The notes beneath the pieces are model-generated. The model was not told the DNA's origin, searched no databases, and was given only the letters and a program-made list of their open reading frames with translations. DNA of 64,000 nucleotides from a virus: positions 1 through 64,000 of the IMG/VR virus record IMGVR_UViG_3300042878_001023; one strand, 5' to 3'. The translations under genes and the position numbers were made by a program. The stretch's first letter is position 1; every line of letters begins with the position of its first letter. Below, in pieces: positions 7,503-48,185 of this stretch.

Positions 7503-7513
7503 TTAATTAAATT

Positions 7514-7603: not shown

Positions 7604-7644
7604 ATTTTAACTTAACGGGGAGACAGCTTAACTGAATAAATCCT

Positions 7645-12333: not shown

Positions 12334-12340
12334 CAAAAAT

Positions 12341-12997
12341 ATGAAAGTAGAATTAATTAACTATTTTGGAGATGTTCAAATGGTGGCGGATGTTGCCCGT
12401 GTAAGTTATGATAAATCAGCTATTAATTATACACAAGAACAAAACAACAAACTTATAAAATACTTGTGGAAGCATAATCACACAAGTCCTTTTAGACATT
12501 TATCATTGCAGTTTAGAATCACATGCCCTATCTATGTGGAGCGTCAGTTAGCAAAACACCAGGTAGGAATATCAATTAACAGTATTTCAGGCAGATATGT
12601 GGATTTCTCCGATACCTATACTCTGATTGATGAATGGAGAGAGCAAAGTAAAGATAGTAAACAAGGTAGTGCAGGTTCATTAGATTATGAAGGACAAGAA
12701 GCTTGTAATATTATTGAGCATAATGTGTATCAAACATGTAAGAAAGCTTATGCTGATTTAATTAAGTTGGGTGTTTCTAAAGAACAAGCAAGAACAATAC
12801 TACCTCTTAACTTGAATACAACATTTATTTGGACAGGTAGTTTTCTTGCCTTCATTCATATGTGTATATTGAGACTTAAACCAGATGCTCAGTATGAAAC
12901 AAGAAAAGTTGTTGATGCTATGTTAACTGCTGTAGGAGAGATTCCGGGAAACCCTTATGAACAATTATTAGAAATTATAGATTCAGAATTAATATAA
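12341..12997 (+). CDS. thyX: Flavin-dependent thymidylate synthase ThyX
   Basis: Makes dTMP from dUMP using FAD, NADPH and methylene-tetrahydrofolate, supplying thymidine for an AT-rich genome. The ThyX signature is at residues 72-86 (KHQVGISINSISGRY), preceded by the RQ pair at 68-69. This is the variant with K/HQ in place of RHR and one extra residue, seen in some phage and bacterial ThyX. The HTSPFRH segment (47-53) and the C-terminal RLKPDAQYETR region also match the family. An in-frame ATG at 12314 would overlap the previous gene by 20 bases and add an Asn/Lys-rich leader. The ATG at 12341, giving 218 residues, fits the family length. Five bases separate it from the membrane protein gene. 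Confidence 0.9.
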   Translation: MKVELINYFGDVQMVADVARVSYDKSAINYTQEQNNKLIKYLWKHNHTSPFRHLSLQFRITCPIYVERQLAKHQVGISINSISGRYVDFSDTYTLIDEWREQSKDSKQGSAGSLDYEGQEACNIIEHNVYQTCKKAYADLIKLGVSKEQARTILPLNLNTTFIWTGSFLAFIHMCILRLKPDAQYETRKVVDAMLTAVGEIPGNPYEQLLEIIDSELI

Positions 12998-19903: not shown

Positions 19904-22900
19904 TTATACACAGTTAAAAGGATCAGATTCAAAACCTAGTGATGCAAGAATTTCATCATCTGATATACCTTGTTTATTACTTATTACTTCAGTTATGTCT
20001 TTGTAAGCTGAAGAACCAGGATTTAAATAACCTAACTCTTCAAATAACCTCTTACTTAAATATACAAATAATTCTTTAGGCATTTTCTTAGCATCACCTA
20101 TTCCTGCTTTAGGAAGTGCTATTTTGTTACCTAAGTCTTTAGCATTTTTAAGCTCCTGAATTTTTCTATCAAAATAGTTTTTCACACTTTGATATTTATC
20201 AGCTGCTAAGTTACTAAAGTTATCAAAATTACTAGTCAAACTTGTAACAAAAGGTAAGGCAGTATCTTTGGATACTAATCTTAAATAGCCTTGTCCAGGA
20301 AGATCTTTATTATTATCTATTTCAAACTTGGTTGCATTATAAACAAAACCTACTGTAGAATTAGTACTGGTTAATTTTTTGTAGAAAGCAGCACTGTCAT
20401 CTTTTGAATCATCAAACAAAAAGATGTTAGGATCTGGTGTAGTAATAAGATCATTAGTTTGTTCTTCAACACTAGTAGATAGTTGAGTATCATAATCAGT
20501 AATATCTTCAGATTTAATATCCTCAAGCATTTGTTTATATGATTCAGCATGTCTATCTATAGTTTCATCTGATACATTTGCTCTGTTTTCTCCTCTTGCT
20601 AGTTGTGCTTTAATTCTTTGTTTGGCTAACTTAGCATCTAAAGGCATAAGTTTATATTGAATATTAGCATTAGGTATTGCTTTTTTAATAGCTTCAACAA
20701 AAGGTCTTCTTTTATCTTTAGTAAGATTGGTAGTATCAAACACTACTTGTTTACCTTGTTTAATAGCTTGTATAGCTCTATTAGCTGCTTCAATATAAAT
20801 CTCTTTGTCTTTAGATTTATTATTTATATCTCCTGTAAATTCAACTCTCATTGCATCAGGTTCTATGACTACTAAATTTTCTTGAGGTAAAGACTTTATA
20901 AATGTAGATTTTCCACTTCCTGAAGTTCCTATAGGTAAAATAACATTAGCTTCAACACTAATAGATGGTTGAGTAGCTTTTTGAGTAGCTGCTTCAGTAC
21001 CTACTTTACTAAAGTCAATGTCTGTAAAATAGTTCTTAAATCTGTTTTTGTCTTTATTTTTATAACTATTCTGAGCATTAAACTTGTAATAAAAATCTCT
21101 TAATACTCTTTCAGCTTTATCCGGATTAGAAAGAAGTTCAGTAAAGTCTTTAACAGCATCATCCATAATGTTTAAGAATGGTTCTGTACTTACATAAGGA
21201 ACTAAGTTAGATTTAGTTTTATTGATACCTGATTGCAAGTATGCAAACAAAGGAAGTCTAGAGAATAAGTAAGAAATGTTTTCTATATCTTGGTCACTTA
21301 AACTTAATTCATTAGCTAATCCTTTTAACAAAACAGGATCTGCTAAGTCTGTTAAATTTTTAGTGTAAATATTTGCTTTGATGTTGTCAATATCACGGTC
21401 AATCAAGTTAAGATTGAACATAGTATTTTGAGTATTGTTATCAAGCTCTAGTTTTGATAACACATCAAATTTATTTACAAGCTTAGGATTATTTAAGATT
21501 ATGTCATATAATCTTACAGCAAAAGCATTTTTTGGATCACTAAATAAATGATTAACATTGAAAGTATTATCAAGTGCTCTGTTTGCTAGAAACTCTTCAT
21601 AAGCTGTTTTTTCCAAACCTGTTTCTGCAATTGGATAAATAGATCTTAAATATTCTCTTTCCATTACAAATCTAGTATAAGCTTGTGTATTGTTTCCTTT
21701 AGCAATTGTAAATGTATTTGCTGGAACAGGATGTAATCCTAACTGTGAATAATAGTTTGGTTCATTTGCTTTTTCTTTCCATACACCTGATGTAAATTCA
21801 TCTTCTAAATTTTTAAGATTATAAAACAAAGTTTTGCTACCATCTTTATTTGTTTTTACAAAAGCTCCAAACTTATCAGAAAGCATCTGTTTACTTGGTA
21901 ATTCTTTTGCATCATATGATACATAACCTTTTTTAATGTCTGTTTTAGCTAATCTGTTTTGGAAAATATAACTTACTAAATCATTTCTAAAAGTATTCAA
22001 ATAATTATCTCTACCACTTTCACCAAATGTAGATTTTATATTTTCTCTTAAAGCATTGGAATCATCTTCAGATTTAATAAATCTACGGATTGCATCATTG
22101 TATCTTAATTTAAACAATGGTGCAGCTAAAGACAATGCAAGTTTGTTATTAAAGAATGAGCTAATAACTGAGTTGCTCATCAAAGCAGATATTATTGGTT
22201 GTAACTCAGGATTATTTTCTAAGTTTTCTAATCTTGCTTCTGATGTCTCAATATCAGATAATACTGACTTAGTATTAGTATCTGGATTAGAGTTCATCTT
22301 AACCTGTGTAATACCCTTAATCTGGTCTTCAATATCCAAGTAGTGTAAGAACATAGTTAATGATAAGTCAGAAGATTTAAAGTTATTATTCTTTTTAGAA
22401 TCTTGTATTAACTGTAACATTTCTTTTTCTGTGAAATGTTTATCTTTTCTATCCTTCATTAATTTATCAAATAACTTACGTCCTGTTTCAAATCTAACAT
22501 CTGCTTTACCTTTAGCTGGTAATACAGAAGGATTGAAATATTTATTAATGATATTAGAAGCTGATTGGAATTTAACAAATGCCTTTTCTTCTGGAGCTTT
22601 TCCTAATACAGAAGCAAATGTAGATTTAGCAAGACGCTGTTCATCTACATATTCTCTTACTAATGGTTGTGATACAAAGTAAATAGCTTCTTTAACAGGA
22701 ACACCAGCTTTAATTAAATATAACAATATAGGTGCTACCTCATAGTTACCTTGGATAAAGAAAATCCAGGCATCTTTTTCAACATCCACCCAGCCGTTCA
22801 TTGCTTGGGAGAATATATCTGCTATTTTATTAACATTGTCAACATCATATAAATTAGATAGGGAAATTCTATCCTTTCCATTAACATTTCTTACATTATG

Positions 22901-25900
22901 TCTTAAACCTATAACAGTACTTCTTGTTAATTTTGAATAACTATTTGTATATGTTTCTGGCATCAAAGCTCCAATAGAGTTTAACAATACATTCATTGTA
23001 TTTTCTATAGCACCTAGACCTAATGTTTTCTTACCAACAATATTAGATTCATGTTTATATAAGTTATAAAGAGGTTCTAATACTCTTGTTGCACTGATAA
23101 TTTTCTTACCTTTTTCAGGTTCTGTTGTTGTATCAGTCATATAATTTTTGAATGGATCGTATTCCATCACATCTGCAGCTAGTTTGTCTGCTATATCTTT
23201 CAATAAGAAAGTACCATTCGGTGTAACAAGAGAAACAAAGTTTTGTGGAAGCTCAAGTATTTCTTTAATATCATTCATTAAGTCATTCTCTACTCCTGCT
23301 TTTTGTTGTTTGAAAGCTTTTGTTATGGATTCATCTTCATTATCTTTGATGTTCTGTAGAGAAGCTTTGAGCTCCGCAGTGTTTTTATAGGTTCTTTCTT
23401 TAAGCTTACCATCCATGTCTATGTTAGTCATAAAGATTGTAAGTTTATCAATATCAAAGTCACCCCCTGACTTAGCAACTATCTCTGCTGGAGGAATGAT
23501 TATATTACCTGCTTGTGGAGGTAAGAATTCATATACTTCCATGAACTCCATAGAGTTTAGACCCTGAACCGGAATCCTAACCCCTACAAGAGTTATTGCT
23601 TTTCTGTTAGCACCATCATTTGCATCTAACCATTCATCATCTTTGATTGCTTTGTTTAATGTATAAATATCTCCAATAGTTGCCCCTTTATATTCAAGAT
23701 TCAACAAGTTAGCATAGTCCCCCTGTAATGCAATCATAACCTTCATTGCTGCAGTTTTACCATCCGCCTTCTTATGATAAGTAGGAAGTAAGTTACTACC
23801 TACCCATTTTTTCTTATCTGCATCAGTTGCATTTCTAAAATTAGGAGACTCTGTAAGGTTATTTTCATAAAAAGCAGAAGATACTTGTACAAGTGGTTCT
23901 CCTTTTACTTTTTGTTTGATAACTCTTTTGTTAATCAGAGATAATAAAAGCTTCTCAATTTTTAATGCTTCTGGGTGTAATGATAAATCATGTAATAACT
24001 CACCACTATCAAGAGCATCAATAAAGTTGAGCATTTCATCACTGTAAGATTCTTCTCTATCTAAGTTATTTCTAACAAGTGACAATAATTTACCTATACT
24101 TTCTTTGTCTCTTGCTTTGTATTCACCGTCAGGAGTTTCATCAAAACCAATTTCTTCTAATAACTCTAATTTAACTAACTCAGTATAATCAGATACATTA
24201 TCAAGATATCTTTTTACTAATGGTGATACTACATCTTTCTCATCAGGAGAATTGATTACACCATTTTCATACAAGTTATCTAAAACTAACTTTCTCATCT
24301 GAGTAGAGAAAATAGATTTACCTTTATACTCAGAGTTAACTTCTGTTTGATTCTTTAAGAACTCTGTGAAGATTACATTTTTTGTAAATGGTTCATTCAT
24401 AAGAATATTACCATTATCATCATATATTTCATCACCAGTCCCTAAATGTCCAACTTTAGAACCTGATTCAAATACAACATAGTCTACATCATTAAGCATC
24501 ATTTTTTGGTGCAAATCATATAGTGGTGTACCTTTTTTAGCTACTCCTGGTATAATTGGAGCAAGTGAGAATTTATGGAATGAAGTAACAGGTAAGCCTG
24601 TAGTTTCCATAGCTCCACAATACTGTAATTTATATGGAGGAAAATACTGTACTATATCTTCTACAGATACTTCTTCACCATTAGCTAACTTTTTATACAA
24701 CTCTTCTTGTTCTGGTAACCAGTTACCTTCAAGATTTTTAAGTATTCTATATGATTCAAAACTGATGTGGCCTTGACCATCACCAATCTTCATATCATTA
24801 TATTCTTTTAAAGCAGTTTTTGCTAATTCTTTTGCCTTAGTTTTATCACCAAATCTTTTTGTATAGTCTTTTACAAGAGCATCATAGTACTCATCATAAT
24901 ACTCAGACTTTTTTATAACTCTTTCTTTTATGATTGCTGTAGTTAGAGTACCGTCAAATGGTTTACTTGGTGCTATTTTATTAAACAACTTAGGCATTTT
25001 ATTTACAAAACTTCTTGACTTTAAATCAGAAGCAAAACCTAAACCACCAGAACCAAAACCAGCATTTCTTTTATGGAATTCTTCTTTAGCATGATTGTAT
25101 TGTGCTAAGTCTCCATAACCAAGAATAGCAGTTTCAAACTTGTGAATCCAAGAGTTGTAAGCATATGCTTTCATCAGTGTTGTATCAGATTCATCTACTG
25201 TAAGTTCAACACCTTTGTTTTCAATTCTACCTCTTAAAGCAGGATCAATAAACTTTGTTTTATCAAGTCTTTCTTTCAACTCAGTTGTTATACTGTTAAA
25301 ATACTTAGCAACATCTTTTCTTATTTCTTCTGTTAGCTTAGCATTGTCATCATATACATCTGAGAAATCAAAATCAGATTGATTATCAGCAACAGCTTTA
25401 TCTACTATAGCATAGATTTTTGCTTGAGTATCTTTAGATAATACATCTTCAAAAGCAGCAAGAGCTTGACCAGCCATTACTACTTCTCCTGTTTTTCTAT
25501 TTACAGTTCTTGTATAACCTGTAAATTGAGAATATTTTTCTAAATCAGAACTAAATTTAAAAATTCTATTTACCTCACCAGTCAAGTATCCAGATAAAAT
25601 ATCAAATGCATAATCTTCACCAGAGTTTGTAGTTGGTAAAAACTTCTCTATATCAACATATAAGTTTTTAGCATTTTTATTATCATAAGTTTTAAGACCA
25701 TTTTTTAATACAATACCTTGTGACATTTGTTTAGAAGCATGTCTCATGAACTCTTCTACACCACTCATCAACATAGTATGAATCTCTTGCAAGTATTTAC
25801 TTGTAGCATCCATTGATGCTGTAGAAATACCTTCTTGATTATTAGTTGTAGTGTCAATTAACTGTGTTCCAGCCACATTTTGAATTACCAATGTATTATC

Positions 25901-28900
25901 TTTTTTACCACCAGGGTTATTCACAGCCAACAAATCATTAAATAATGATTTTAGCAATACAGAATGTCTTGTGTAAGTATTGTTGTCATATGCTAAGTAA
26001 CGCATATGTCTAAACAAACCATTTGGATCAGCATCAGGATTTGTAAGTTCTTGCCAAGATTTTGCATGGTTTAAAGAAGTCATGATTCTTGTAAAAGTAT
26101 TATCCAAGAAATGCTCCCACACTCTATTTCCTTCAGGACTAACTGCACTAAAGTTAGAATACTTATCAGAAAATCTTACTTGTAGATTAGCAAGTTCTTT
26201 AATTCTTGAAGAAGAATCAAATTTTTGACCCGGATCTAATGTCTTAGGCAAACTTGTTTTTAAATATGCAAGAGGATTTCTTAAAAAAGTAAATTTTTCA
26301 GGATCATATGTTTTATTTATATGCTCTAAAGAATCAAAGATGTGCCCAATTGCAAACTTATTTACAAAGTTAGGATCAGATATAACACTAGCAATTGTTG
26401 GATTAGATGTATCCATCACAATACCTAATGCATTTAAGAACTCAAGAACATTTTTAGAATTTATGTTATTCTTAAAATATTTTACAAAATTGTTTAAATC
26501 TAATACTCTTTGTCCTGATTTATTTTCAACAATAAATTTAGAATCAGCAACAGTAAGAAAAGTTATTTCCCAATCTTTTAAAACTTTTGATCTATCAAAA
26601 TCTGTTCTTTGTACTCTTGCTTCTGCCAATACAGCATCAGCAGTTTTAGTAATATTTAAATTTAACTGTACATATGATAGTCTAGGTTTTTTAAGATCTT
26701 GCCAGAACTTAGTTTCAATATCAAACTCAGCCTTGTCATTGTAATCAGTATTCTGCGGGTTAGGCAAATAAGATAACAACTGTAAAAACTCAGGATTATC
26801 TTTTATGTTTTCTGAAAGTCTTTTATACATCTCAGATTTGTCAAAAGAACCTGCTAATACTTTAGCAACCTTACTCCACATTTCTCTTTCATCTAAAAGC
26901 ATGTATAAACCTGTTTGAGGGTCTACTTCATATTCAATAGATAAAACTTGTTTACCCTCATCATTTACAGTAACTTTTGTTTTATTTCTGTCTACTTTGT
27001 AGATACTGGATAAAATAGTTTTAGTCTCTTGACTAGCTGCTTCTCTTGAAGAAAAAATGTTACCACCGTCAAGTCTAACAATTCTAGAATTATTTATGTC
27101 AGTCGGATCTTCTTCTAGCTCAACAAATTTATTTGCTAAAATTTTGAATCTAGAATTCTGCATGTGAAAAGCAATAACACCTTTCTGATCTTTACCGTCA
27201 ATTGTTGTATCAATATCTCCAAAATTATCTAGCATTCTTCCTAAAAATGGAAGTTGATTTAATTCCAATGTATCAATGTCACCACCTTCAGCTGCAGTTT
27301 TTGCAAAGTCTTCTCTTAATTGATTAAATCTTTCAGATATTTTCTTTTCTAAAACCTTATACAAATGCTTTCTATTTGCATTAGTTTGTAATACTCTAAC
27401 TGGTGCAGAAGAACTATTTCTTTGTTGGTTTACAGAATTAAAAATGTCAGGAATTAAACTATCCAAATAGCTTACAATTTTTAATGATTCAGCAGAATCA
27501 AATGGTTCATACTTAGTAGCAACATCCTTTACAGAAGTAATAGCTTTAGCTCTATTCAACTGAGTAAACATCATGTTGTCAGTAGAAGGTTGCATATCTT
27601 GTAATAGCTCTGGATTCTCAGAGGCTCTGTACAATTTGTCAAACAATTCTTTTACTGAAGCAATGTCTCTTGGTCTTGTAGCTAAGTCTTGTTTGCTTAC
27701 TCTACCTATGAGGTTCTGTAGGAACTGGTACATTCTTCTGAATACTGTCCCCAAAAATCCTTTAGGTGCTTCTTTTTTACCTCTGCTTCTTGCATAATCT
27801 CTAAAGTCTTCTGCAATATCTTCTTCAATATCAAAGAATGATTTATTAGCCCACTTCGGTTGACCCTTTAATTCATTGTATAACTTAATCTTTTCATCTC
27901 TTGTTAAAAATAACTGAGAGAATCCGTGCCATGCTTCATGGTATAAATCTACAGCAGTACCACCATCACCTTCATAAAGTGTGATACCAGTTCCTGTAAA
28001 TGTTGCAAATGCATTTGAGTTTACAATCTGAGTTATTCTGTTTAAGCTAATATACTTACTCAAAGGAGAGTTAGCCCACCAAGCTTCAGCTGCTGCTTTG
28101 TCAGCTGCAGTAGTGAAGACTTTATCTAAAAAATTATCTAAAGCTTTACTTCTATCTAAATTAAAACCATTAGCATCTTCTTCTGACAAATCATTCTTAA
28201 ATGGTGTAAACCAATTGTGCTCAATAATAACTTCAACATTCTCAGCAGCTGCTGGTACTTTAGTAGTTCTTTTTTTCTGAACAGCTTTTGATTTTTCTTT
28301 AACAACTTTCTCAGCAACTTGATTCTTTTCAGCCTGAGTTTTTTTCCTAACTGGAGCTCCAGTTTCAGAGTCTAAAGCAATATCAAAAAATGACTTTGGG
28401 TTTTCTGTAAACTGACCAGGTACAGCATAACTTAAATAAGGATTAAATCCTGAAATCATTGAGCCACCCTCATTAGTAAATTGTGGCTTTGCATACTTTA
28501 ATACTACTTCATCAATGTAGTCTTTTTCAACAGGTCTAAACTTATCTCCAGAAATTTCATAATCTGTGTAAGTCTCTTTATCTTTATAACTAGTTGAAAT
28601 ATTTACATTAGCTCCAATTGAACCCTTGTCACCAAACTTAATTGCTTTAGGTAAATGCTCTGCAATCTTATCTCTTACAGCAGTAGTAAAGATGGCATCT
28701 CCTTCAAACTTTTCATCATTAATTGTTAAAGTAAGTGGTCCACCAGCAGCTTTATCTAAAAAAATGTTGTTTTTATTTTTAACACCTTTTTTACTTATTT
28801 TTTGATTATTTAAAAATACTTTGAAATAAGCTATTCTTTCATCATCAGACAAAGTTCTACCTTTATTTGTAGCTTTAGTTGTAATAACATCAGCTACTTT

Positions 28901-30190
28901 ATTAGCAAGTTCTTGATCAAAATTACCTCTCTGTATGTTTACAGGCATACTAATTTCACCAAAATTGGGACTATTATAAGTAATAAAAAATTGAGCAAAA
29001 CCTTGACTTAAATCTTTACTTGATATAATTTTTGCATCCTTAATAATTTCTCTTGTAAGTTTTACAGTTTTTTGTAAATCATTGTTGATTGATTTTCTGC
29101 TTGCTGAAGTTAATATACCAAAACTACCACCATTAATTTGAGTAATATAAGAAGTATTGTTGTCTATAATATCTTTACGCATATTATAAACACCATTCAT
29201 GTTTTCTGTTTGATTTTCTAAAACTTCTTTACTAGACATACCAAAGCTGCTTTTTGCAATTTTACTTGCTGCAACCAATGTATTTTTATACATTTTACCA
29301 AGGTTATGATAAATCAAAAACAAAGCAGGTTGATTTTTATTTAGCTTATCTTCTAACAAATAAGGTTTTCTTATAAATTGATAAACAACTGTACCTTTAT
29401 CTTCAGTAGTTAAATTACCATTTTCATCAAAGTATAAGTAGTTACCATCAATATCTGTAACAACAGCAAAAACACCTCTGTAAGATTTAGCAGTTGCAGT
29501 TTTATGATTAGATAGTTTATGCTTATTTTCAAAGCTTTCTGAAGACATCATTTTTAAAAAAACTTCTGTATCATCAATAACAGGATTGTTTTGATCAATA
29601 GTTTTCTCATTAGAAGCTTTGATAATTTTTTTAATTACTATTTCAAAAACTTTTTTATCTTCAGCTAAAACATCATCTTGAATTTGTGTATTTGGATCAT
29701 CTGGATTTTTATCTTCTGCAAATTGAAATGTTGTAACATTAGGATTTTCAACTTTAGCTTTACTCATTTTTTCTAATACAGAATCATCAGGATCAGTAAT
29801 CTCCAAATTATCTAATTGAAAGTTTTCATGTTCTAACTCACTCTTTAATTCTTTCTTAGATTTTTTTCTTACAGGTTCAGTAACATATTTCTTAACATTA
29901 TCAATGTCATTAAATTCTTCTCTCAAGTTCATTATAACTTTAGGATCAAAATCAGTTTTAGCTAATATGCTGTTTATTTCATCATCACCCTGCACAGAAT
30001 GTATAGTAAGAGGAATGATTTGAGCATATTGTAAAGCTTTTTCTTCACCAGCAGCTTTCTCAATTCTTTGGTATATATCTTTTATATATGCCTTTAAATC
30101 AAAACTTTCTGAAGGTTTAAGTCCAGAAAGTTTTTTATATGTTATTTTTCTTAAATCTGAAAGCTGAGTTTCATTGAGTGAACATATCAT
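19904..30190 (-). CDS. Giant virion RNA polymerase polyprotein
   Basis: A multidomain protein of about 3428 residues. Numbering here is from a TTG three codons upstream (30199). The preferred ATG at 30190 overlaps the previous stop by one base (TAATG), implying coupled translation. An HEAWH motif (about 752-756) marks a zinc-peptidase-like domain. The polymerase core follows: a beta-like double-psi barrel with conserved Lys residues (about 1880-1945, TGLPVTSFHKFSLAPIIPG), then a beta'-like part with RIPVQGLNSMEF and the catalytic D2247-F-D2249-I-D2251. This is the single-chain RNA polymerase type described for crAss-like phages and Cellulophaga phage phi14:2, which is ejected to transcribe early genes. 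A polynucleotide-kinase-like P-loop (GTSGSGKST, about 3090-3098; DTTNL further on) and an unassigned C-terminal domain complete it. Confidence 0.88.
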   Translation of the reverse strand: MICSLNETQLSDLRKITYKKLSGLKPSESFDLKAYIKDIYQRIEKAAGEEKALQYAQIIPLTIHSVQGDDEINSILAKTDFDPKVIMNLREEFNDIDNVKKYVTEPVRKKSKKELKSELEHENFQLDNLEITDPDDSVLEKMSKAKVENPNVTTFQFAEDKNPDDPNTQIQDDVLAEDKKVFEIVIKKIIKASNEKTIDQNNPVIDDTEVFLKMMSSESFENKHKLSNHKTATAKSYRGVFAVVTDIDGNYLYFDENGNLTTEDKGTVVYQFIRKPYLLEDKLNKNQPALFLIYHNLGKMYKNTLVAASKIAKSSFGMSSKEVLENQTENMNGVYNMRKDIIDNNTSYITQINGGSFGILTSASRKSINNDLQKTVKLTREIIKDAKIISSKDLSQGFAQFFITYNSPNFGEISMPVNIQRGNFDQELANKVADVITTKATNKGRTLSDDERIAYFKVFLNNQKISKKGVKNKNNIFLDKAAGGPLTLTINDEKFEGDAIFTTAVRDKIAEHLPKAIKFGDKGSIGANVNISTSYKDKETYTDYEISGDKFRPVEKDYIDEVVLKYAKPQFTNEGGSMISGFNPYLSYAVPGQFTENPKSFFDIALDSETGAPVRKKTQAEKNQVAEKVVKEKSKAVQKKRTTKVPAAAENVEVIIEHNWFTPFKNDLSEEDANGFNLDRSKALDNFLDKVFTTAADKAAAEAWWANSPLSKYISLNRITQIVNSNAFATFTGTGITLYEGDGGTAVDLYHEAWHGFSQLFLTRDEKIKLYNELKGQPKWANKSFFDIEEDIAEDFRDYARSRGKKEAPKGFLGTVFRRMYQFLQNLIGRVSKQDLATRPRDIASVKELFDKLYRASENPELLQDMQPSTDNMMFTQLNRAKAITSVKDVATKYEPFDSAESLKIVSYLDSLIPDIFNSVNQQRNSSSAPVRVLQTNANRKHLYKVLEKKISERFNQLREDFAKTAAEGGDIDTLELNQLPFLGRMLDNFGDIDTTIDGKDQKGVIAFHMQNSRFKILANKFVELEEDPTDINNSRIVRLDGGNIFSSREAASQETKTILSSIYKVDRNKTKVTVNDEGKQVLSIEYEVDPQTGLYMLLDEREMWSKVAKVLAGSFDKSEMYKRLSENIKDNPEFLQLLSYLPNPQNTDYNDKAEFDIETKFWQDLKKPRLSYVQLNLNITKTADAVLAEARVQRTDFDRSKVLKDWEITFLTVADSKFIVENKSGQRVLDLNNFVKYFKNNINSKNVLEFLNALGIVMDTSNPTIASVISDPNFVNKFAIGHIFDSLEHINKTYDPEKFTFLRNPLAYLKTSLPKTLDPGQKFDSSSRIKELANLQVRFSDKYSNFSAVSPEGNRVWEHFLDNTFTRIMTSLNHAKSWQELTNPDADPNGLFRHMRYLAYDNNTYTRHSVLLKSLFNDLLAVNNPGGKKDNTLVIQNVAGTQLIDTTTNNQEGISTASMDATSKYLQEIHTMLMSGVEEFMRHASKQMSQGIVLKNGLKTYDNKNAKNLYVDIEKFLPTTNSGEDYAFDILSGYLTGEVNRIFKFSSDLEKYSQFTGYTRTVNRKTGEVVMAGQALAAFEDVLSKDTQAKIYAIVDKAVADNQSDFDFSDVYDDNAKLTEEIRKDVAKYFNSITTELKERLDKTKFIDPALRGRIENKGVELTVDESDTTLMKAYAYNSWIHKFETAILGYGDLAQYNHAKEEFHKRNAGFGSGGLGFASDLKSRSFVNKMPKLFNKIAPSKPFDGTLTTAIIKERVIKKSEYYDEYYDALVKDYTKRFGDKTKAKELAKTALKEYNDMKIGDGQGHISFESYRILKNLEGNWLPEQEELYKKLANGEEVSVEDIVQYFPPYKLQYCGAMETTGLPVTSFHKFSLAPIIPGVAKKGTPLYDLHQKMMLNDVDYVVFESGSKVGHLGTGDEIYDDNGNILMNEPFTKNVIFTEFLKNQTEVNSEYKGKSIFSTQMRKLVLDNLYENGVINSPDEKDVVSPLVKRYLDNVSDYTELVKLELLEEIGFDETPDGEYKARDKESIGKLLSLVRNNLDREESYSDEMLNFIDALDSGELLHDLSLHPEALKIEKLLLSLINKRVIKQKVKGEPLVQVSSAFYENNLTESPNFRNATDADKKKWVGSNLLPTYHKKADGKTAAMKVMIALQGDYANLLNLEYKGATIGDIYTLNKAIKDDEWLDANDGANRKAITLVGVRIPVQGLNSMEFMEVYEFLPPQAGNIIIPPAEIVAKSGGDFDIDKLTIFMTNIDMDGKLKERTYKNTAELKASLQNIKDNEDESITKAFKQQKAGVENDLMNDIKEILELPQNFVSLVTPNGTFLLKDIADKLAADVMEYDPFKNYMTDTTTEPEKGKKIISATRVLEPLYNLYKHESNIVGKKTLGLGAIENTMNVLLNSIGALMPETYTNSYSKLTRSTVIGLRHNVRNVNGKDRISLSNLYDVDNVNKIADIFSQAMNGWVDVEKDAWIFFIQGNYEVAPILLYLIKAGVPVKEAIYFVSQPLVREYVDEQRLAKSTFASVLGKAPEEKAFVKFQSASNIINKYFNPSVLPAKGKADVRFETGRKLFDKLMKDRKDKHFTEKEMLQLIQDSKKNNNFKSSDLSLTMFLHYLDIEDQIKGITQVKMNSNPDTNTKSVLSDIETSEARLENLENNPELQPIISALMSNSVISSFFNNKLALSLAAPLFKLRYNDAIRRFIKSEDDSNALRENIKSTFGESGRDNYLNTFRNDLVSYIFQNRLAKTDIKKGYVSYDAKELPSKQMLSDKFGAFVKTNKDGSKTLFYNLKNLEDEFTSGVWKEKANEPNYYSQLGLHPVPANTFTIAKGNNTQAYTRFVMEREYLRSIYPIAETGLEKTAYEEFLANRALDNTFNVNHLFSDPKNAFAVRLYDIILNNPKLVNKFDVLSKLELDNNTQNTMFNLNLIDRDIDNIKANIYTKNLTDLADPVLLKGLANELSLSDQDIENISYLFSRLPLFAYLQSGINKTKSNLVPYVSTEPFLNIMDDAVKDFTELLSNPDKAERVLRDFYYKFNAQNSYKNKDKNRFKNYFTDIDFSKVGTEAATQKATQPSISVEANVILPIGTSGSGKSTFIKSLPQENLVVIEPDAMRVEFTGDINNKSKDKEIYIEAANRAIQAIKQGKQVVFDTTNLTKDKRRPFVEAIKKAIPNANIQYKLMPLDAKLAKQRIKAQLARGENRANVSDETIDRHAESYKQMLEDIKSEDITDYDTQLSTSVEEQTNDLITTPDPNIFLFDDSKDDSAAFYKKLTSTNSTVGFVYNATKFEIDNNKDLPGQGYLRLVSKDTALPFVTSLTSNFDNFSNLAADKYQSVKNYFDRKIQELKNAKDLGNKIALPKAGIGDAKKMPKELFVYLSKRLFEELGYLNPGSSAYKDITEVISNKQGISDDEILASLGFESDPFNCV

Positions 30191-33100
30191 TAGTAACAAG
30201 TTTTTGAGTTATCTTCTAAGTTTTTGAATAAATCATCTTCATTTGATTCCTTTGCTTCTTTATAATCAGAAGCTTCAGTTTCTTTATTTTCAAAGAATGT
30301 TTTAGCATCAGTTTTAGTTTGTTCTGAAGCATCAACAGTTTCTTGTGATGGTTTTTCTGTCTGAGTCATTTGAGTTTCTTTTGAAGGTTTAACAAAATTA
30401 TTTTGAAGCTCCTCTTCAGTTACTTCTCTTTTTGTATCTCCATACTTTAATATAACAGAATTTTCTTTAATATCTACTACTTGTACCGGAGAATCTTGTT
30501 CTGTAAAGTTAGTAATATCTTGTAAAAGATCACCTTTTTTCAATGAATTGATATCAACATTATTCTCTAACTCAGCTAATCTATTTTGATATGCAGACTC
30601 TATTTGAGCTAACTTGAGTTTATTCTTAGACATCTTAGACATCAACTCTTTTTTCTTATTAAATAACTCAGTAGTATCTTTGATTTTTGCAAAGGCTTCT
30701 GTTGCTTTATTTACTTCAGGAGTTAGTTCAGCAAGCTCATCAATAGAAGAATTAACTATTTTTTGGAGTTCATTAAAAGGGATTTCTTTTGTTTCTCCTG
30801 CTTCCTCCATTCCAGAAACTCCCTCTGTTGTTGATCCGGTAGGGCTTTGAATCTCAGATACACCAATGTTTGATTCATCTCCGGATTCTGCTCCGAAGAT
30901 TTTGTTAAGGTCTTGTTCATAATCTTGTTTTTTAGCAATTCTATTTGTTTCTGTTAAGTTAATTAAAACTAAGTGATCAAGTAAATCTTTTAATACATTA
31001 ATTTGTCTATTGGTAGCAGCTACTCCAAAAGGATCATTACTATACATTTTAAAAGTTTCATATTCTTTTAATGCATCTATTGTTTTTTGGATACCATTTC
31101 TAAGTGCTTCTAACTTTTTAGCACCTCTACCTAATGCTGATATACCTTGTAGTCTTACTTCAGTTAGTTCTTTAGGAAGATTCTTTTGCATAATCATAGT
31201 TACCTCTTCCTGAACTTTAGGTGAGGCATCTGATAAACTATGTATTTTTTTAAGTTCTTTTTCTATGTCTTGAGGTTTAGTACCCAAGCTGTTTTTCTGA
31301 AAAGAATTTGGTAATCTGTTTAAAGCAAATATTACATCATTAGTATTACCCTCATAAATAAATACTTTGTCATCTGTAGATAAACTGTCTCTTTCTGCAT
31401 TAAGTCTATCAATCTCTTCTTTACCTTTATTGATTTTACTCAATATTGATTGAGGAGATAAGATAGCTAAATCTTGTTTTACTTTTTTGATTTGTGAAGC
31501 AGGAGCATTTTGTCTCTCTAATTCACTAAGTCTTTGTTGAAGATTAGCTTTTGCTGCATAAGTACCAGTAATCTTTTGTCTTAGTTTTGCAATTTTACTA
31601 TTGATAGCAAGTATGATGTTATCAATGTCTTCTCTTCTCTTATCATTTTTAAAATAAACCAGTTGGTTTATATCACCAGAAGGACTTCTTGATACAGTAT
31701 ACCTTACACCATTTACAATTGCTATTGTTTCATTCTCATCTTCAAATGCTGCATCAATAACTTGATTGTTGATTACAGAAATTTGACCAACTTTTTTTAC
31801 AGGAGTAATCAAAGATAAACCAACACTAGTAATTTCAGAAGAACCATTAGTTGCAGGCTTTCCTTCAGAAGTAACTGTATATATTTCTTTACCTTTTTTA
31901 GTCTTTTGTAAGTCATCAATTTGTTTTTGAATTTCTTCAGCTTTATCAGGATCACCGAATTCCCCTTTAGCAAAAGCCAAATCAGCCATCAATCCTGTTA
32001 AATTACCTTCTTCATCAATACCTCCTATCAAAGTTTCAGACATAGATTGTTCAAAACCTAAATCAACTTCAACTCCATATGACCCATCAGCTTGTAAAAT
32101 CAATGTTCCAATTCTACCATTGAAAACTACTTGTTTACCTACATTATCATTAAGTGTTAATTTAGATGTGTCAGATGTTTTTGTTTGTGTAGATGGTTTA
32201 ACTTTTTCAACTTCTTTTGTTTCTTCACCAGGTGTTTCAACTTCTGAAGAAATTTCAGGTGCAGACATAGTAATACCCTTACCTTCCACATCAGGTAAGT
32301 ATTCAAGCTCAAGTGTATTAAATAACTTAGCCGTGTTTGATACTAATGGTACTAACTCACTATCCCTAGTTTTTTCTCCACCAACAGTTACACTAGTAAC
32401 ATATGGTGTAGCATTTTTTAAAGTAATCCTCATTGGAAATAATGCAATCCTTGGAATAACTCCCGTCATGTTATGATACAAGTTTCTATAAATAGAAAGC
32501 TGAGCTCTATATGCAATATTTTTCCAGCTGTTTGGTTTGTTGAAACCATTCCATGATGTAGATGTTTTAATATCTACAATCATAATCTCACCTTTATTAT
32601 TAATCAAAACCATATCTGTTTCACCAGATGCACCATTTTCTAATAAATTTTTATCAAACAGTTTAACATTGTTTGTTAATGGTGTAAAATTTTGAGCAGT
32701 CAGACTTTCTCTAAATCTTGTAACAACACCTCTAATCCCAAACATTTCATCAAAAGCTTTCTCACTCATTATGTCTGAAATCTTAGCTTCTTTACCTTCA
32801 ATTTCTATAGTGTCACTATATTTGAAAGACTTCCAAGTACCAGTTCCAGCATCTATAGTAAAGAATGTTCTTACAGCAGCATCAAGATTAGTACCAGCTT
32901 CAGAGTTATTTGAGAATGCCTCTTTACCAATAAGCTTTCTAAAGTTTTCTTCAGTTGTGTTTTTTTCTAAAGAAGCTCTTATTCTAGCTTTTTTATCTTC
33001 TGTGTTTAACTGTTTATATGAATCCCTAGCTGCAATAGAAAATGCTTCCCAAGCTTTGTTAAAAGCATCTGAATCACCTTTTTTAATATGATCATTATAC

Positions 33101-43412: not shown

Positions 43413-46337
43413 TTATAAATATTCTACTTCACCTCCATTTGCAAGGAATTCTTCTAATTCTTCTTCAGTCATATCAACTTCATCTCCCTCAGTAAATCCT
43501 CCTTCTTGCATATAACCACCTGTTTGCATACCTTCATATTCATTTGGACCAGGTTGAATTGCTTCTAATGTTCTAGGATCAATTCTACCATCTTCAAATG
43601 GTGTAGGTCTTCTTTCATCCATTGGATAATATGATGGATCATTTCTTCTTGGACCACCACTTCCTACAGCATATGGAGTATTATATCTTTCTAAACCATA
43701 AGCTTTATTCATTAAGTCTTGTAATTCTCTGTGTCTATTAGTTTTTGTATATGCACTTTTTTGAGGTACTATTTTTAACCACTCAGAATCATTCATGGCA
43801 CCAATTGCTTCACGGTATTTAGTTTTATCTTCTTCACTATAATCAGCTTCTTCCATTGCATTAAGGAAGGGATCAACATTATCAGTATTTTCTCTTTGCA
43901 TCATTAATTCAAGACCTCTTTTAAACTCAGGAGTATCTGTAAATTCTTTTAGTATTTCTTTTTTAGTATTACCACCTTTTTGCATATAACCACCTTCTTG
44001 ACCATAAGCAAATCTTCCGCTAGTGTCACTACCCATTTGATCATATCTAAACTGACCAACTTGTTGACCATAATCTACATAATCACCTCTGTCTTTTGAG
44101 TTAGAAGCAGCATACATGTTATCAGAAGTAAAATTGTTGTCATACATTTCTTTCTGTTGCTTAGCAGAATCAAGATTGTTTAAGAATCCTGTTACAGCAG
44201 TTGCCCCTACATTAAATTTATTAACAGCATCTTCACCATCAAAGTTACTAGGAGCTCTTTGTTTATCAACTGCAATTATATCATCATTTTTTGGATCACC
44301 AAAATCTTCAGAAGTAATTGTTTGACCCTTAGTTTGATTAGGATCCATCTGTACTGTTTTAACTTTACCAGCATCAGGATTAACAGGAGCTGAAGGTGCA
44401 CCTGGAAATGATTGTGTAGCTCCCATAAAACTATTTGGATTTGAAGCAGGCTTTAACATACCTGATAAATCACCAGTGTTAGTAGTTGGATCAGAAGGTT
44501 TTTTAACCGGAGGTCCTGTTTGTGCTTTTGGTAAACCACCATATCTAAATGCATTTTTTTGATTTTTAAAATCAGACTGCTCTTTATTTTCTATATATTC
44601 TTGTAAATTTTCAAATTCTTGAGCTTTAGATTTACCAGGTTTAAATTGAAAAGTTTGAGGTAACATAGGTTCCTCTAATTCATCAGCTCCGTATTCTTCT
44701 TCTGTATCTAGTATATTTTGCATCTTATTACCATGAAATTTTAGAAAATCTTTCATGCTACCTGAATTTTTTATTAACTCTGAATCTGCTTGATCTCTTT
44801 CATTCATTACAGATGCATTCTCAAAATCTATTGGTGTAATCAGATCCTTATACTTAAATTTATCCACTACTGTTGGTAATTCAGCTTTATCTAAATCACT
44901 ATATGCAGGACCATAAACTTTATCAAAAATATTTACTGGATCCCAACGGTATTCTCCATTTCCAAGATCTCTTTTTTTAGTAATGATGTCTTTGTATGGT
45001 ACACCTTCATAATCTATATCAGACACAAAAGATTTATCTTTATCCCAAGCATCATCACTTCTTTTTTGATCTCTTGCTAAATCTTCTGGATTTTCATACT
45101 TATATTCAGCATGAACACCTTTGTTAAATGCAGCATCTTCTTTCATTGAGTCAGCACCTCTTCTAGCTTCTCTACCTAATTGTCTTTCTCCTCTTCTAAT
45201 TTCTCTTTTTGCTTTACCAGGTAAAGTATCCCAAACATCTTTTTCAACACCATGCTTTAGAGATTTATCTTCTGCCATTTGTTTTTCATAAGCAGCTTTA
45301 ATTTCTTGACCAGATGTTAATGGTTTACTAGAACCAGAACCTTTAGAATAATATTCAGTCCACTGTTTAGGTCTTCCTAATAATCCTCTTTTGTGAACTG
45401 TTTTAGCATATGGATTTAATCCTTCAAAAGAATCTTTGTATTCTTCTTTTGTTTTTGCATTATATGCTTTACTAGATATAATACCTCTTTTTGCTTCTGG
45501 TAACATATCAGCTTCATAGAATGGTATATCTGTTCCACCATACATGAACATTTCTGGTTGTTTATCACCACCAACTAGACCACCTGACTGTGCTTCTTGA
45601 AATGTACCCGTAGGCGGTTTATTTCTTTGCTCTGCAATTTTCTGAGCACCTTGGATTAATTCAGGATTATTAGAACCCATCATTTTTTTATAAAGCTCAT
45701 CAACAGCTGCTTTATCAGCAATCTCTTTTATTTTAGAAACAAATTCAGATTTTTTAGAAACATCTCCATTGATTGTATCAAACCTTTCTCCTTTACCAGG
45801 TTCTTTTTCAGCTCCTCCTTCTTGCTTTTTAAGTAAGCTTAATACATTTTTAGTAAAGTTTTTCTTAGATGTTTTACCACCATACTGGTATTCCATATTA
45901 GGATTGTAATCTTCTTCTTCATCCGCATATGAATTATAGTAATCTAATCCTTGATCAGATTCTTCTTCAACAGGTACTTCTTCTTGAGACATTTCTTGCT
46001 GTGGTTCAGTACCTTCTTCTGTAACCCCATTTTCTTTTTGTTCAGCAGCAGCTTCTTCCTCTTCAATTTCAGAATTAATTTCTTCCAATAAATAAGAAGC
46101 TATATCTTTTCTTATACCCTTACTTACAAGAACTTTATATATATCCTGATCATCAATATCTTCAGATTTTAAACCTTTTATGTAAAGCTTAACATTCTCA
46201 AGTTGTTCTTGGACATCATCTTGACTACCAGATACCTCCATACCTCCTTGAGCTTTTTCTAAAAACTGCTTTGTTTTATTTATGTATTTACCTTCTCCAT
46301 CATGAGATTTGTAAATTCTAACTTTTCTTTTTTCCAT
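43413..46337 (-). CDS. Low-complexity virion cargo-type protein, 974 residues
   Basis: A mostly disordered, charged protein starting MEKRKVRIYKSHDGEGKYI. Repeated short modules are visible: EKAQGG, QEAQSGG, LPEAKRGIIS and YGGLPKAQTG, separated by 100-350 residues, plus several GGYMQ(K/E)GG units near 785 and 945. The last 30 residues read DMTEEELEEFLANGGEVEYL, related to segments in the next gene product. No enzyme signature is seen, though the basic stretch KREIRRGERQLGREARR (about residue 370) may bind nucleic acid. It sits between the other two proteins of the same style, so the three probably arose by duplication of a docking module. Confidence 0.75.
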   Translation of the reverse strand: MEKRKVRIYKSHDGEGKYINKTKQFLEKAQGGMEVSGSQDDVQEQLENVKLYIKGLKSEDIDDQDIYKVLVSKGIRKDIASYLLEEINSEIEEEEAAAEQKENGVTEEGTEPQQEMSQEEVPVEEESDQGLDYYNSYADEEEDYNPNMEYQYGGKTSKKNFTKNVLSLLKKQEGGAEKEPGKGERFDTINGDVSKKSEFVSKIKEIADKAAVDELYKKMMGSNNPELIQGAQKIAEQRNKPPTGTFQEAQSGGLVGGDKQPEMFMYGGTDIPFYEADMLPEAKRGIISSKAYNAKTKEEYKDSFEGLNPYAKTVHKRGLLGRPKQWTEYYSKGSGSSKPLTSGQEIKAAYEKQMAEDKSLKHGVEKDVWDTLPGKAKREIRRGERQLGREARRGADSMKEDAAFNKGVHAEYKYENPEDLARDQKRSDDAWDKDKSFVSDIDYEGVPYKDIITKKRDLGNGEYRWDPVNIFDKVYGPAYSDLDKAELPTVVDKFKYKDLITPIDFENASVMNERDQADSELIKNSGSMKDFLKFHGNKMQNILDTEEEYGADELEEPMLPQTFQFKPGKSKAQEFENLQEYIENKEQSDFKNQKNAFRYGGLPKAQTGPPVKKPSDPTTNTGDLSGMLKPASNPNSFMGATQSFPGAPSAPVNPDAGKVKTVQMDPNQTKGQTITSEDFGDPKNDDIIAVDKQRAPSNFDGEDAVNKFNVGATAVTGFLNNLDSAKQQKEMYDNNFTSDNMYAASNSKDRGDYVDYGQQVGQFRYDQMGSDTSGRFAYGQEGGYMQKGGNTKKEILKEFTDTPEFKRGLELMMQRENTDNVDPFLNAMEEADYSEEDKTKYREAIGAMNDSEWLKIVPQKSAYTKTNRHRELQDLMNKAYGLERYNTPYAVGSGGPRRNDPSYYPMDERRPTPFEDGRIDPRTLEAIQPGPNEYEGMQTGGYMQEGGFTEGDEVDMTEEELEEFLANGGEVEYL

Positions 46338-46385: not shown

Positions 46386-46406
46386 TTATTATGTTTATTG
46401 TTCTTC
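46386..46406 (-). other. AT-rich hairpin overlapping a stop codon
   Basis: AATAAAC and GTTTATT pair over a 7-base loop on the minus strand around the stop codon of the 596-residue gene (46395-46397), followed by a short TTGT. It could be a weak terminator or a 3' end stabiliser. The 57-base gap to the next gene otherwise holds only AT-rich sequence. Confidence 0.3.
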
Positions 46407-48185
46407 TACAATGTATCCTTGATTTATATAATCTTGAATCTCATCATCTGATAATTCTAATTCAACTTCTCCACCTGATTCAAAAAATCTACTTTTAGGT
46501 TTCATTATGTAATCATGACCCCCAAGTTCATTTTTTACTTTTCCAATTTTTCTTAAATTTAAATCTGTACCAATAAGTTCTCTTTCTTGTAAAACAAGTT
46601 CGGGTAAGCTTTTATAAGAAGATCTCAAGTCTTCAGGTATTTTATTTAAAACTTCATCAGAATAATCTGTATAATGCTCATTTTTTATAAAATTTTTACC
46701 AGCTTTTTTTGCATTTTTTCCACTAAGAACAATTCTATCTTTTGGTCCATTATAATCTGCACCTCTACCTGCAGAAAATGAAACAGGTCTATCACCAAAA
46801 TTTATAGTTTTGTTTTTTAAATTAAATAGTTTTGGATCTTCAGCATTTATTTTTCTTATTAATACTGTATCGTCAGGCATATCAACACCTGTTTTTTTTA
46901 TCAAATTATTTAGTTTAGATCTTAATACCTCGTCTACATTACCCCATCTACCTGTATATGGAGATGAGTCAAATGCATAATCTCTAATCATAGCATGTTG
47001 CCATTCTGTAAGTGGTTTTTTATTTTTTATAGCATTATATATATCTTGTGCTTGATCTGATGTTACACCTTGTGCTCGGCTTTTCCAAGCATAAGGTAGT
47101 ATAGTTTCACCATGAGCAACTTTATCAGCAACATCATCAACATATTTATAAGCATCTTTTACTTTATTACCTGTACCAAAACCTGAAAAGTTAAGTGCAT
47201 TTAAGGTGTTTTCATATAATGCATTTGCTACATTATCCGCTGTTGGCTTTTTATAAGCTTTCTTAGTTGCCTTTCTTACATCACTGTTTGGGTCAATATA
47301 GTCATTAACACCCATGACACCTCCTGCTGCGGTAAGAAAGTTTCCAAGATTAGCTCCTGGAGCCCATGATGGAGCAGCCGCCATCATTGTTTTGAAACCT
47401 TGTTTTACTAATGGAGCAGCAGCTTTTACTCCCTTTACAGTACCTGGTAGTAAAGCAGCTTCTGTAAAAAATTCATCTGCATAATTACCAGCACCTTGTG
47501 GTTTAGAATATAGATTTTTTGTTTGGTCTGTTGCCCAAGAGTCTTTCTTAGGATCAAAAGTCTTATTAAAAACTTTACCGTCTTTACCTATAACTTTTGT
47601 ATATACAGTACCATCTTCTTTCTGAACCTTAATAGTTTTGTTACCTTTTTTATCAGTGTGTTCTTTAGTAGATATTATTCCTTTCTGAGCTTGATTAAGT
47701 TCTGGTACAGATATATCTTCTACTATGTAACCACCTTTTCTGTATTCTTCTATTTCATCATCTGTAAGTTCTGCTTCTACATATTCACCACCATCTTGAT
47801 AATAATCTACAGTTGGATCATATACTCTATTCTTGTAATTCTCAAACAATGGATATTTAAGGAATAACTTATTAGTACCAGATAAGCTTTTAGTTTTTTT
47901 CTTAGCTCCTCCTTTTCTCATTTGTGGATATTCATCAACATAATCTGCTCCAGGAAAAGTGTAGTCTGCTCCGGGAAGCATTATCTTTCTTTGACCATTA
48001 TTGGCTACACCTAATACAGGATAACCTACTCCTTTCATAGTAATATCATTACTAGGAATTCTAGTTGGTAATCCAGGATATTTCCACTGACCCATTGGAT
48101 CATTGATCATATCTTTAGGTTTCTTAGGTGCTTTAGCTTTGTCCAACTCAGCTGAAGCTTTAGATAGAGCTTTTTTATTATACAT
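46395..48185 (-). CDS. Virion cargo-type protein with ADP-ribosyltransferase-like domain
   Basis: A 596-residue protein. The N-terminal 200 residues are of the cargo type, with YVEAELTDDEIEEYRKGGYI (about 135-154) and NQAQKGIIS. A Gly/Ala-rich hydrophobic part follows (about 240-300). Residues about 375-560 look like an ADP-ribosyltransferase of the R-S-E class: R444 in VLIRK, the S469-F-S471 strand, and E534-R-E536 in LQERELIGTDLNLRKI, with normal spacing. Such enzymes move ADP-ribose from NAD+ to a host protein, as T4 Alt does on infection. The C-terminus repeats the acidic motif, ELSDDEIQDYINQGYIVEEQ. Gene order implies that it is packaged and ejected. The activity is inferred from motifs only. 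Confidence 0.75.
   Translation of the reverse strand: MYNKKALSKASAELDKAKAPKKPKDMINDPMGQWKYPGLPTRIPSNDITMKGVGYPVLGVANNGQRKIMLPGADYTFPGADYVDEYPQMRKGGAKKKTKSLSGTNKLFLKYPLFENYKNRVYDPTVDYYQDGGEYVEAELTDDEIEEYRKGGYIVEDISVPELNQAQKGIISTKEHTDKKGNKTIKVQKEDGTVYTKVIGKDGKVFNKTFDPKKDSWATDQTKNLYSKPQGAGNYADEFFTEAALLPGTVKGVKAAAPLVKQGFKTMMAAAPSWAPGANLGNFLTAAGGVMGVNDYIDPNSDVRKATKKAYKKPTADNVANALYENTLNALNFSGFGTGNKVKDAYKYVDDVADKVAHGETILPYAWKSRAQGVTSDQAQDIYNAIKNKKPLTEWQHAMIRDYAFDSSPYTGRWGNVDEVLRSKLNNLIKKTGVDMPDDTVLIRKINAEDPKLFNLKNKTINFGDRPVSFSAGRGADYNGPKDRIVLSGKNAKKAGKNFIKNEHYTDYSDEVLNKIPEDLRSSYKSLPELVLQERELIGTDLNLRKIGKVKNELGGHDYIMKPKSRFFESGGEVELELSDDEIQDYINQGYIVEEQ

What the first reader, a model, noticed from the sequence alone, without database searches (positions are those of the whole stretch)
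46395..48185. ADP-ribosyltransferase-like domain in an apparent virion cargo protein
Residues about 375-560 show an R-S-E pattern (R444 in VLIRK, S469-F-S471, E534-R-E536 followed by LIGTDLNLRKI) with spacing usual for mono-ADP-ribosyltransferases. It sits between two disordered docking regions in a gene next to other cargo-type genes and the ejected polymerase. This would be a crAss-like counterpart of T4 Alt, modifying host RNA polymerase or defence proteins at the moment of infection. I know of ART domains in phage polyvalent proteins but not of one established as crAss cargo.
Basis: partly seen in the sequence, partly recalled or inferred. Interest (0 to 1): 0.8.

Follow-up and report, generated by a model that had tools for sequence, protein, structure and literature searches.

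The report
Swappable enzyme gene beside phage muzzle
A crAss-like phage carries, right beside its tail-tip gene, a protein with conserved ends and an exchangeable middle; in this phage the middle may be an ADP-ribose-transferring enzyme that could be injected into the bacterium, but the enzyme identity is supported only at moderate strength.

Summary
Bare R-S-E spacing is common by chance (41 of 1138 control pieces); a stricter pattern, written after seeing the target, is not (0 of 1138). Against a 91-member phage R-S-E ADP-ribosyltransferase (ART) profile none of 500 native and none of 150 shuffled controls scores as high; by hhalign the payload lies between proven ARTs ModA and ModB, by HMMER below both (E 1.7). 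The confident core is 42 residues around R444. In A13 E534/E536 fall on the ExE columns, the serine two off. AlphaFold without ART rows failed (pLDDT 36.7); the ART-like model is biased. So: probable, unproven ART.

Larger finding: the gene fills a variable slot directly after the muzzle gene (56 of 59 relatives). A conserved N-terminal dock and short tags flank middles exchanged at DNA level; 42 proteins give 24 C-terminal clusters; relatives carry lysozyme, amidase or HExxH motifs. The dock resembles part of a phi4:1 protein annotated as MS/MS-detected in virions. It works like MuF polymorphic cargo. Delivery and target are untested.

The parts
46395..48185 (-). whole gene, 596 aa: dock, tag, pre-payload region, ART-like payload, C-terminal tag
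47781..48185 (-). N-terminal dock, aa 1-135 (contains IPSNDITMKGVGYPVLGV and FPGADYVDEYPQM)
   Evidence: 63 distinct proteins of the fetched loci, the window's own included; related segment in phi4:1 gp040 and Lbo-JY46 XAI97386
47712..47792 (-). internal tag, about aa 132-158 (ELTDDEIEEYRKGGYIVED)
   Evidence: tag model E 1.1e-9; DNA 76% and 79% identical to C-terminal tags of L017 and L014
47118..47690 (-). pre-payload region, aa 166-356
   Evidence: L003 is 86% identical over aa 1-364 and then differs; dS 0.868 versus L001
46494..47114 (-). exchangeable payload, aa 358-564, ART-like
46854..46856 (-). R444, candidate NAD-binding Arg
   Evidence: aligned with the ART Arg
46773..46781 (-). S469-F470-S471, candidate STS motif
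   Evidence: in A13 S469 falls on the third STS column, two residues off the expected register
46578..46586 (-). E534-R-E536, candidate ExE catalytic motif
   Evidence: on the two invariant Glu columns of A13 and A8; out of register in A7 and A12
46401..46475 (-). C-terminal tag, aa 571-595 (LELSDDEIQDYINQGYIVEE)
   Evidence: C-terminal tag in 30 of 63 dock proteins; the tag model was built from 26 of the 63; 16 of 63 are cut by a contig end
48185..53623 (-). muzzle homologue (1812 aa), upstream neighbour
   Evidence: a homologue lies directly upstream in 56 of 59 relatives tested
43413..46337 (-). downstream gene (974 aa) with a weak C-terminal tag
   Evidence: tag model E 0.001
19904..30199 (-). 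3431-aa protein with DFDID at aa 2247, putative virion RNA polymerase
   Evidence: DxDxD as RNAP mark in crAss-like phages: PMC7886860 passage

Best explanation
The gene encodes a modular virion cargo protein of a crAss-like phage. An N-terminal dock and short acidic tags (one internal, one C-terminal) hold the protein in the tail or capsid cargo space next to the muzzle; between them sits an exchangeable payload. In this phage the payload is most likely an R-S-E-type (Alt/VIP2/Mod-like) mono-ADP-ribosyltransferase, ejected ahead of or with the DNA, that modifies a host macromolecule at the start of infection. Shown: the conserved ends, the DNA-level exchange of middles, the slot after the muzzle, the profile similarity to ARTs around R444. 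Inferred: what the dock and tags do, presence in the virion, ejection, catalysis. Unknown: the target.
For: Slot: muzzle homologue directly upstream in 56 of 59 testable relatives. Exchange: DNA 89% identical over 7.5 kb into aa 343, no blastn match from 344 to 576, identity resumes at aa 577 (L017); 24 C-terminal clusters among 42 proteins. ART payload dS 0.128 against 0.387 (dock) and 0.868 (pre-payload) in the same pair of phages, as expected if it moved recently. Domains in the 63 dock proteins at E up to 0.01, some below Pfam's cut-off: Phage_lysozyme 17, Amidase_2 3, Glucosaminidase 1; HExxH in 20 of 63. Virion: dock related to phi4:1 gp040, annotated as detected by MS/MS (hhalign P 1.1e-5); phi4:1 gp041, in the same slot, is also annotated as MS/MS-detected. 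ART: P 3.7e-4, first of 651 queries, repeated with L001 alone at 4.7e-4 (92% identical, so hardly independent); Alt profile 0 of 220 native and 0 of 60 shuffles as high; R and ExE on motif columns; dN/dS 0.34, none of 17 changes at a named residue.
Against: HMMER with the 91-ART profile gives 4.6 bits, E 1.7, fourth of 875 domain rows from 1122 sequences, below ModA (16.8) and ModB (12.0); L001 is about 17th at 2.7 bits. The earlier 54-row profile gave -1.4 bits, rank 70. With ModA alone as template 3 of 220 controls and 1 of 60 shuffles scored as high, and L001 gives P 0.48. The confident hhalign match spans 42 columns around R444; it does not reach S or ExE. No Pfam, NCBIfam or PDB sequence match to an ART. 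AlphaFold with its own two-row alignment failed (pLDDT 36.7, no ART match). The ExE strand lacks the 'LPR' seen in most of the 26 ARTs, the Ser is two residues off, and ExE is misplaced in two alignments. Only one other genome was found with this payload. crAss001 gp45 shows no dock (P 0.34), nor does phi4:1 gp041 (P 0.074).
Confidence: 0.5

Rival explanations
1. Modular cargo as above, but the payload is not an ART: another effector or an envelope-active domain, since many relatives carry cell-wall enzymes. The R-S-E pattern is convergent or accidental.
For: Relatives carry lysozyme, amidase and HExxH motifs; the bare motif spacing is common; HMMER is not significant; the profile match spans only 42 columns; AlphaFold without ART rows fails.
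Against: The payload outscores all 650 controls against the ART profile, and R and ExE fall on motif columns in two MAFFT alignments.
Confidence: 0.3
2. An ART fold that has lost catalysis and serves as a structural or binding module in the virion.
For: No 'LPR' after ExE, SFS in place of STS, Lys445 in place of the usual Gly.
Against: R444, S469, S471, E534 and E536 are unchanged in the one relative, with dN/dS 0.34.
Confidence: 0.1
3. An ART made in the infected cell late in infection and not delivered; the dock and tags serve assembly only.
For: Lies among structural genes; no virion proteomics for this phage at hand.
Against: Dock shared with a phi4:1 protein annotated as virion-detected; slot follows the muzzle; relatives carry cell-wall enzymes of a kind used at ejection.
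Confidence: 0.1

Closest known systems
MuF polymorphic toxins of temperate phages (Jamet 2017, PMC5576092; passages seen)
   Same: A conserved virion-associated N-terminus with variable C-terminal effector domains, ARTs and metallopeptidases among them, proposed to be injected with the DNA.
   Different: No MuF domain; gene follows the muzzle; payloads lie between repeated tags; several relatives carry cell-wall hydrolases. A pattern scan of 84,980 bacterial and archaeal species genomes with the dock confirmed no relative (0 of 30 stretches), which fits a non-integrating phage.
T4 Alt (packaged, injected ART; annotation; PMC5512222 passages)
   Same: R-S-E type motif; hhalign aligns R444 with the Arg of LYRSQ in Alt; proposed delivery with the DNA.
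   Different: Different chassis; weak similarity (P 0.0068 against nine Alts); target unknown; this phage seems to bring its own RNA polymerase.
Crassvirus cargo proteins gp45 and gp46 of crAss001 (Bayfield 2023, PMC10172136; passages seen)
   Same: Genes directly after the muzzle; stored in the virion and expected to be ejected.
   Different: No dock detected in gp45; for gp45 and gp46 no enzymatic payload is described in the passages I saw.
Polyvalent proteins (Iyer 2017, PMC5512222; passages seen)
   Same: Injected multidomain proteins mixing peptidases, cell-wall enzymes and ARTs.
   Different: Per that paper their ARTs are of the H-Y-D type, not R-S-E.

Membership tests
R-S-E ADP-ribosyltransferase (Alt/VIP2/Mod clade) | Arg on first core strand, in register | tested here: met
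   R444 on the Arg column in hhalign and MAFFT alignments
R-S-E ADP-ribosyltransferase (Alt/VIP2/Mod clade) | Ser-Thr-Ser strand motif | tested here: inconclusive
   SFS present, two residues off register in A13
R-S-E ADP-ribosyltransferase (Alt/VIP2/Mod clade) | ExE catalytic motif | tested here: inconclusive
   E534 and E536 on the two invariant columns of A13 and of A8; misplaced in A7 and A12
R-S-E ADP-ribosyltransferase (Alt/VIP2/Mod clade) | Significant profile match | tested here: inconclusive
   hhalign P 3.7e-4, probability 36.6%, above all 650 controls, 42 columns; HMMER E 1.7
R-S-E ADP-ribosyltransferase (Alt/VIP2/Mod clade) | ART fold | tested here: inconclusive
   Model with 26 ART rows, pLDDT 52.6: ARTs top the PDB list (E 7e-3) and viral list (E 1.3e-4), VIP2 Z 6.9, 129 residues, 3.5 A. 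Model without them pLDDT 36.7, no ART
R-S-E ADP-ribosyltransferase (Alt/VIP2/Mod clade) | NAD-dependent transferase activity | not testable with these tools
   needs biochemistry
T4 Alt-like injected ART | protein present in virion and injected | not testable with these tools
   only indirect evidence through the phi4:1 gp040 annotation
Crassvirus cargo proteins | gene between muzzle and virion RNA polymerase genes | tested here: met
Crassvirus cargo proteins | sequence homology to crAss001 gp45 or gp46 | tested here: inconclusive
   gp45 P 0.0092 over aa 277-350 only; gp46 P 0.38; dock versus gp45 P 0.34
MuF polymorphic toxins | conserved N-terminus with exchangeable C-terminal domains | tested here: met
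   (general scheme)
MuF polymorphic toxins | MuF domain | tested here: not met
   no MuF family in the Pfam scan of the window protein at E up to 1

The most novel reading that the evidence does not exclude
crAss-like phages of this group keep a dedicated post-muzzle slot in which effector cassettes, flanked by short repeated docking tags, are exchanged by recombination between phages, so each phage injects its own set of enzymes; here a host-modifying ART. The tags may be the kind of short helix seen bound to the muzzle in the crAss001 virion (14 residues, six copies). Bayfield et al. could not assign that helix and think it probably belongs to gp45 (PMC10172136), so this last link is my speculation.
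Probability: 0.4. Interest if true: 0.82.

Novelty: new variant of a known kind. Interest (0 to 1): 0.62.

Why it matters
If true, these phages have an exchangeable set of injected enzymes, and its position (the gene after the muzzle, with recognisable dock and tags) makes it findable in other genomes of this group. It would give a list of candidate early host-takeover and counter-defence proteins, a natural tag set for loading proteins into such virions, and a candidate R-S-E ART in that slot. My searches for crAss-like or Crassvirales with ADP-ribosyl terms (5 and 8 papers) showed no title or abstract start about such a cargo; only the open-licence PMC library was searched, and those papers' texts were not read for it.

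Tried and rejected
Rejected: PterinBD-DUF4346 hit (E 0.0067 for the whole protein, below its cut-off). PF03496 hits in 2 of 50 records are short and below the cut-off, one with stops inside. Weak similarity to gp45 (P 0.0092) was not pursued. Macrodomain as a reversal partner: 0 of 4 records. ART-PolyVal PF18760: no match in this genome.

Led nowhere: payload relatives in named phages (best E 2), in bacterial and archaeal genomes (0 of 28 stretches), with other alignments (one relative each, the known one). Dock in bacterial and archaeal genomes: 0 of 30 stretches. First AlphaFold job failed, probably for lack of alignment depth. Parts of wholes: 220 and 500 of 1138 control pieces, which include near-duplicates from related phages; 50 loci out of the 63 first asked for; 45 of 66 ART loci plus 9 Alts in the first profile; 91 domains from the loci, exact duplicates and pieces under 110 aa dropped, in the second; 26 ART rows chosen by me for each of A12 and A13. 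I sent A13 to AlphaFold because its motifs were in register, unlike A12, which adds bias. Of 63 dock proteins 42 were clustered; 21 were dropped as cut by a contig end (16), short, or with the dock not at the start; clusters are by blastp, so distant homologues may be split and 24 may be too many.

Full report
What was checked. The ORF at 46395-48185 on the minus strand is 596 aa and ends in TAA. The window lies in a 121,857-base virus record. The upstream neighbour on the same strand, 48185-53623, is a muzzle homologue: it matches phi4:1 gp042 at 25.1 percent identity over 73 percent of the query, and csAssE-Sib's protein annotated 'Muzzle protein' at 24.7 percent over 73 percent. A 3431-aa protein 16 kb downstream bears DFDID, which fits the DxDxD mark of crAss-like RNA polymerases (PMC7886860, one passage).

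The protein is a chassis with an exchangeable payload. 63 distinct proteins with the dock were found in the fetched loci, the window's own included. Of the 62 others, 59 had enough upstream sequence; in 56 a muzzle homologue ends within 400 bases of the dock, and in the other three the dock lies inside a longer ORF that itself starts where the muzzle homologue ends. A short tag (window copies ELTDDEIEEYRKGGYIVED and LELSDDEIQDYINQGYIVEE) occurs inside the window protein and at its end. The tag is found at the C-terminus of 30 of 63 dock proteins; the model was built from 26 of the 63; 16 of 63 are cut by a contig end. At DNA level relative L017 is 89 percent identical over 7.5 kb up to aa 343, then has no blastn match until aa 577, where the tag begins and identity resumes. 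L013, L014, L015, L018, L019 and L021 break at about aa 134-135, 161-172 or 208-246; five of them resume at aa 577-582, with a short match at aa 295-350 in L021, and L014, which keeps the ART payload, resumes at aa 332.

Payload variety. Of 63 dock proteins, 42 have an uncut end, more than 400 aa and the dock at the start (one, L081, begins at a contig edge); their C-terminal parts fall into 24 blastp clusters, an upper count since distant homologues may be split. Recognised among all 63 at E up to 0.01, some below Pfam's cut-off: Phage_lysozyme 17, Amidase_2 3, Glucosaminidase 1. PHROG endolysin, amidase and tail-lysozyme families agree. HExxH occurs in 20 of 63. The ART-like payload was found in one other genome only, that of L001. 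Between these two phages the synonymous distance is 0.128 for the payload, 0.387 for the dock and 0.868 for the region between, as expected if the cassette moved between phages after the backbones parted.

Is the payload an ART? No family library or PDB sequence search names it; but ModA, an ART by its annotation, also finds no Pfam family, so this says little. I built two profiles from phage ARTs without the window's sequence: 9 Alts plus 45 IMG/VR domains, then 91 domains after a second scan. By hhalign R444 falls on the ART arginine each time: P 0.0068 with Alts, 0.005 with 54 rows, 3.7e-4 with 91 rows. In the last, ModA gives 1.2e-5 and ModB 0.0049. L001 alone gives 4.7e-4, but is 92 percent identical. 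Of 500 native and 150 shuffled controls none reached the score of 28.0; the best had 23.0. With the Alt profile 0 of 220 native and 0 of 60 shuffles reached it.

Results against the ART reading. HMMER with the 91-row profile gives 4.6 bits and E 1.7, fourth of 875 domain rows from 1122 sequences, behind ModA (16.8), ModB (12.0) and an 84-aa ORF; L001 is about 17th with 2.7 bits. With the 54-row profile it is 70th. With ModA alone 3 of 220 controls and 1 of 60 shuffles were as high, and L001 gives P 0.48. The confident part of the profile match is 42 columns around R444 (aa 423-465); S and ExE are placed only by forced or MAFFT alignment. In A13 (26 phage ARTs) and A8 (ModA, ModB) R444 and E534/E536 fall on the motif columns, and in A13 S469 sits two residues off; in A7 and A12 the ExE is misplaced. 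One IMG/VR ART in A13 reads ERELILPRG where the payload reads ERELIG.

Structure. With its own two-row alignment AlphaFold gave pLDDT 36.7 and no ART match. With A13 it gave pLDDT 52.6 and pTM 0.40, and the fold lists were headed by ARTs: C3 exoenzyme E 7e-3 in the PDB, a phage ADP-ribosylase E 1.3e-4 in the viral library; VIA-align put VIP2 first at Z 6.9 over 129 residues, 3.5 A, a Z the tool itself calls middling. The alignment held 26 ART rows and was picked for its register, so this is threading and not an independent test.

Is it cargo? The dock is related to a segment of phi4:1 gp040 (hhalign P 1.1e-5) and of Lbo-JY46 XAI97386 (P 1.6e-9). The phi4:1 record annotates gp040, gp041, gp042 and other genes of the block as detected by MS/MS. 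gp041, in the post-muzzle slot of phi4:1, has two HExxH motifs and, by my reading, a tail-lysozyme-like N-terminus; it shows no dock (P 0.074). In crAss001 the genes after the muzzle (gp45, gp46) are cargo (PMC10172136 passages), though gp45 shows no dock (P 0.34). Delivery is therefore inferred.

Mechanism proposed. Shown: conserved ends, swapped middles, slot. Inferred: the ends hold the protein in the tail or capsid cargo space, it leaves with the DNA, and the payload acts on the cell. Some relatives would open the cell wall; this one would ADP-ribosylate a host molecule.

Comparison. It works like MuF polymorphic toxins (PMC5576092 passages) and T4 Alt (PMC5512222 passages). Membership: no MuF domain; not shown to be a gp45 homologue; a probable but unproven member of the R-S-E ART clade. 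PMC9503650 reports ARTs in 30 percent of myoviruses but only 3 percent of siphoviruses and podoviruses (passage). Searches for crAss-like or Crassvirales with ADP-ribosyl terms showed no title or abstract start on such a cargo; the papers themselves were not read for it.

Noticed in passing
window 7513-7604 (+): tRNA with CTA anticodon (called tRNA-Pyl by ARAGORN), a possible TAG suppressor; of 28 window ORFs that I picked, 23 end in TAA, 4 in TGA, 1 in TAG.
   Followed up: partly
window 13968-19901 (-): 1977-aa protein with a LysM domain at aa 1654-1693 and an HEFSH motif at aa 211, downstream of the polymerase-like gene.
   Followed up: no
L005:6001-12723: A 2241-aa protein in the same slot with two HExxH motifs and two tags (ORF positions 436 and 1505), so perhaps several payloads in series.
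   Followed up: partly
L085 (PP438436.1, Leptolyngbya phage Lbo-JY46): A phage recorded from the cyanobacterium Leptolyngbya has a muzzle homologue (25.6% identity over 86%) and a post-muzzle gene with the same dock: a crAss-like tail module with a host recorded outside Bacteroidota.
   Followed up: partly
window 36-1034, 1597-2904, 12314-12997: GIY-YIG/NUMOD homing endonuclease-like gene, VWA plus metallopeptidase (DUF2201) gene, and Thy1.
   Followed up: no
window 43413-46337 (-): The next gene downstream also ends in a weak copy of the tag (E 0.001); Lbo-JY46 XAI97385 matches its C-terminus (28.7% over 94 columns).
   Followed up: partly
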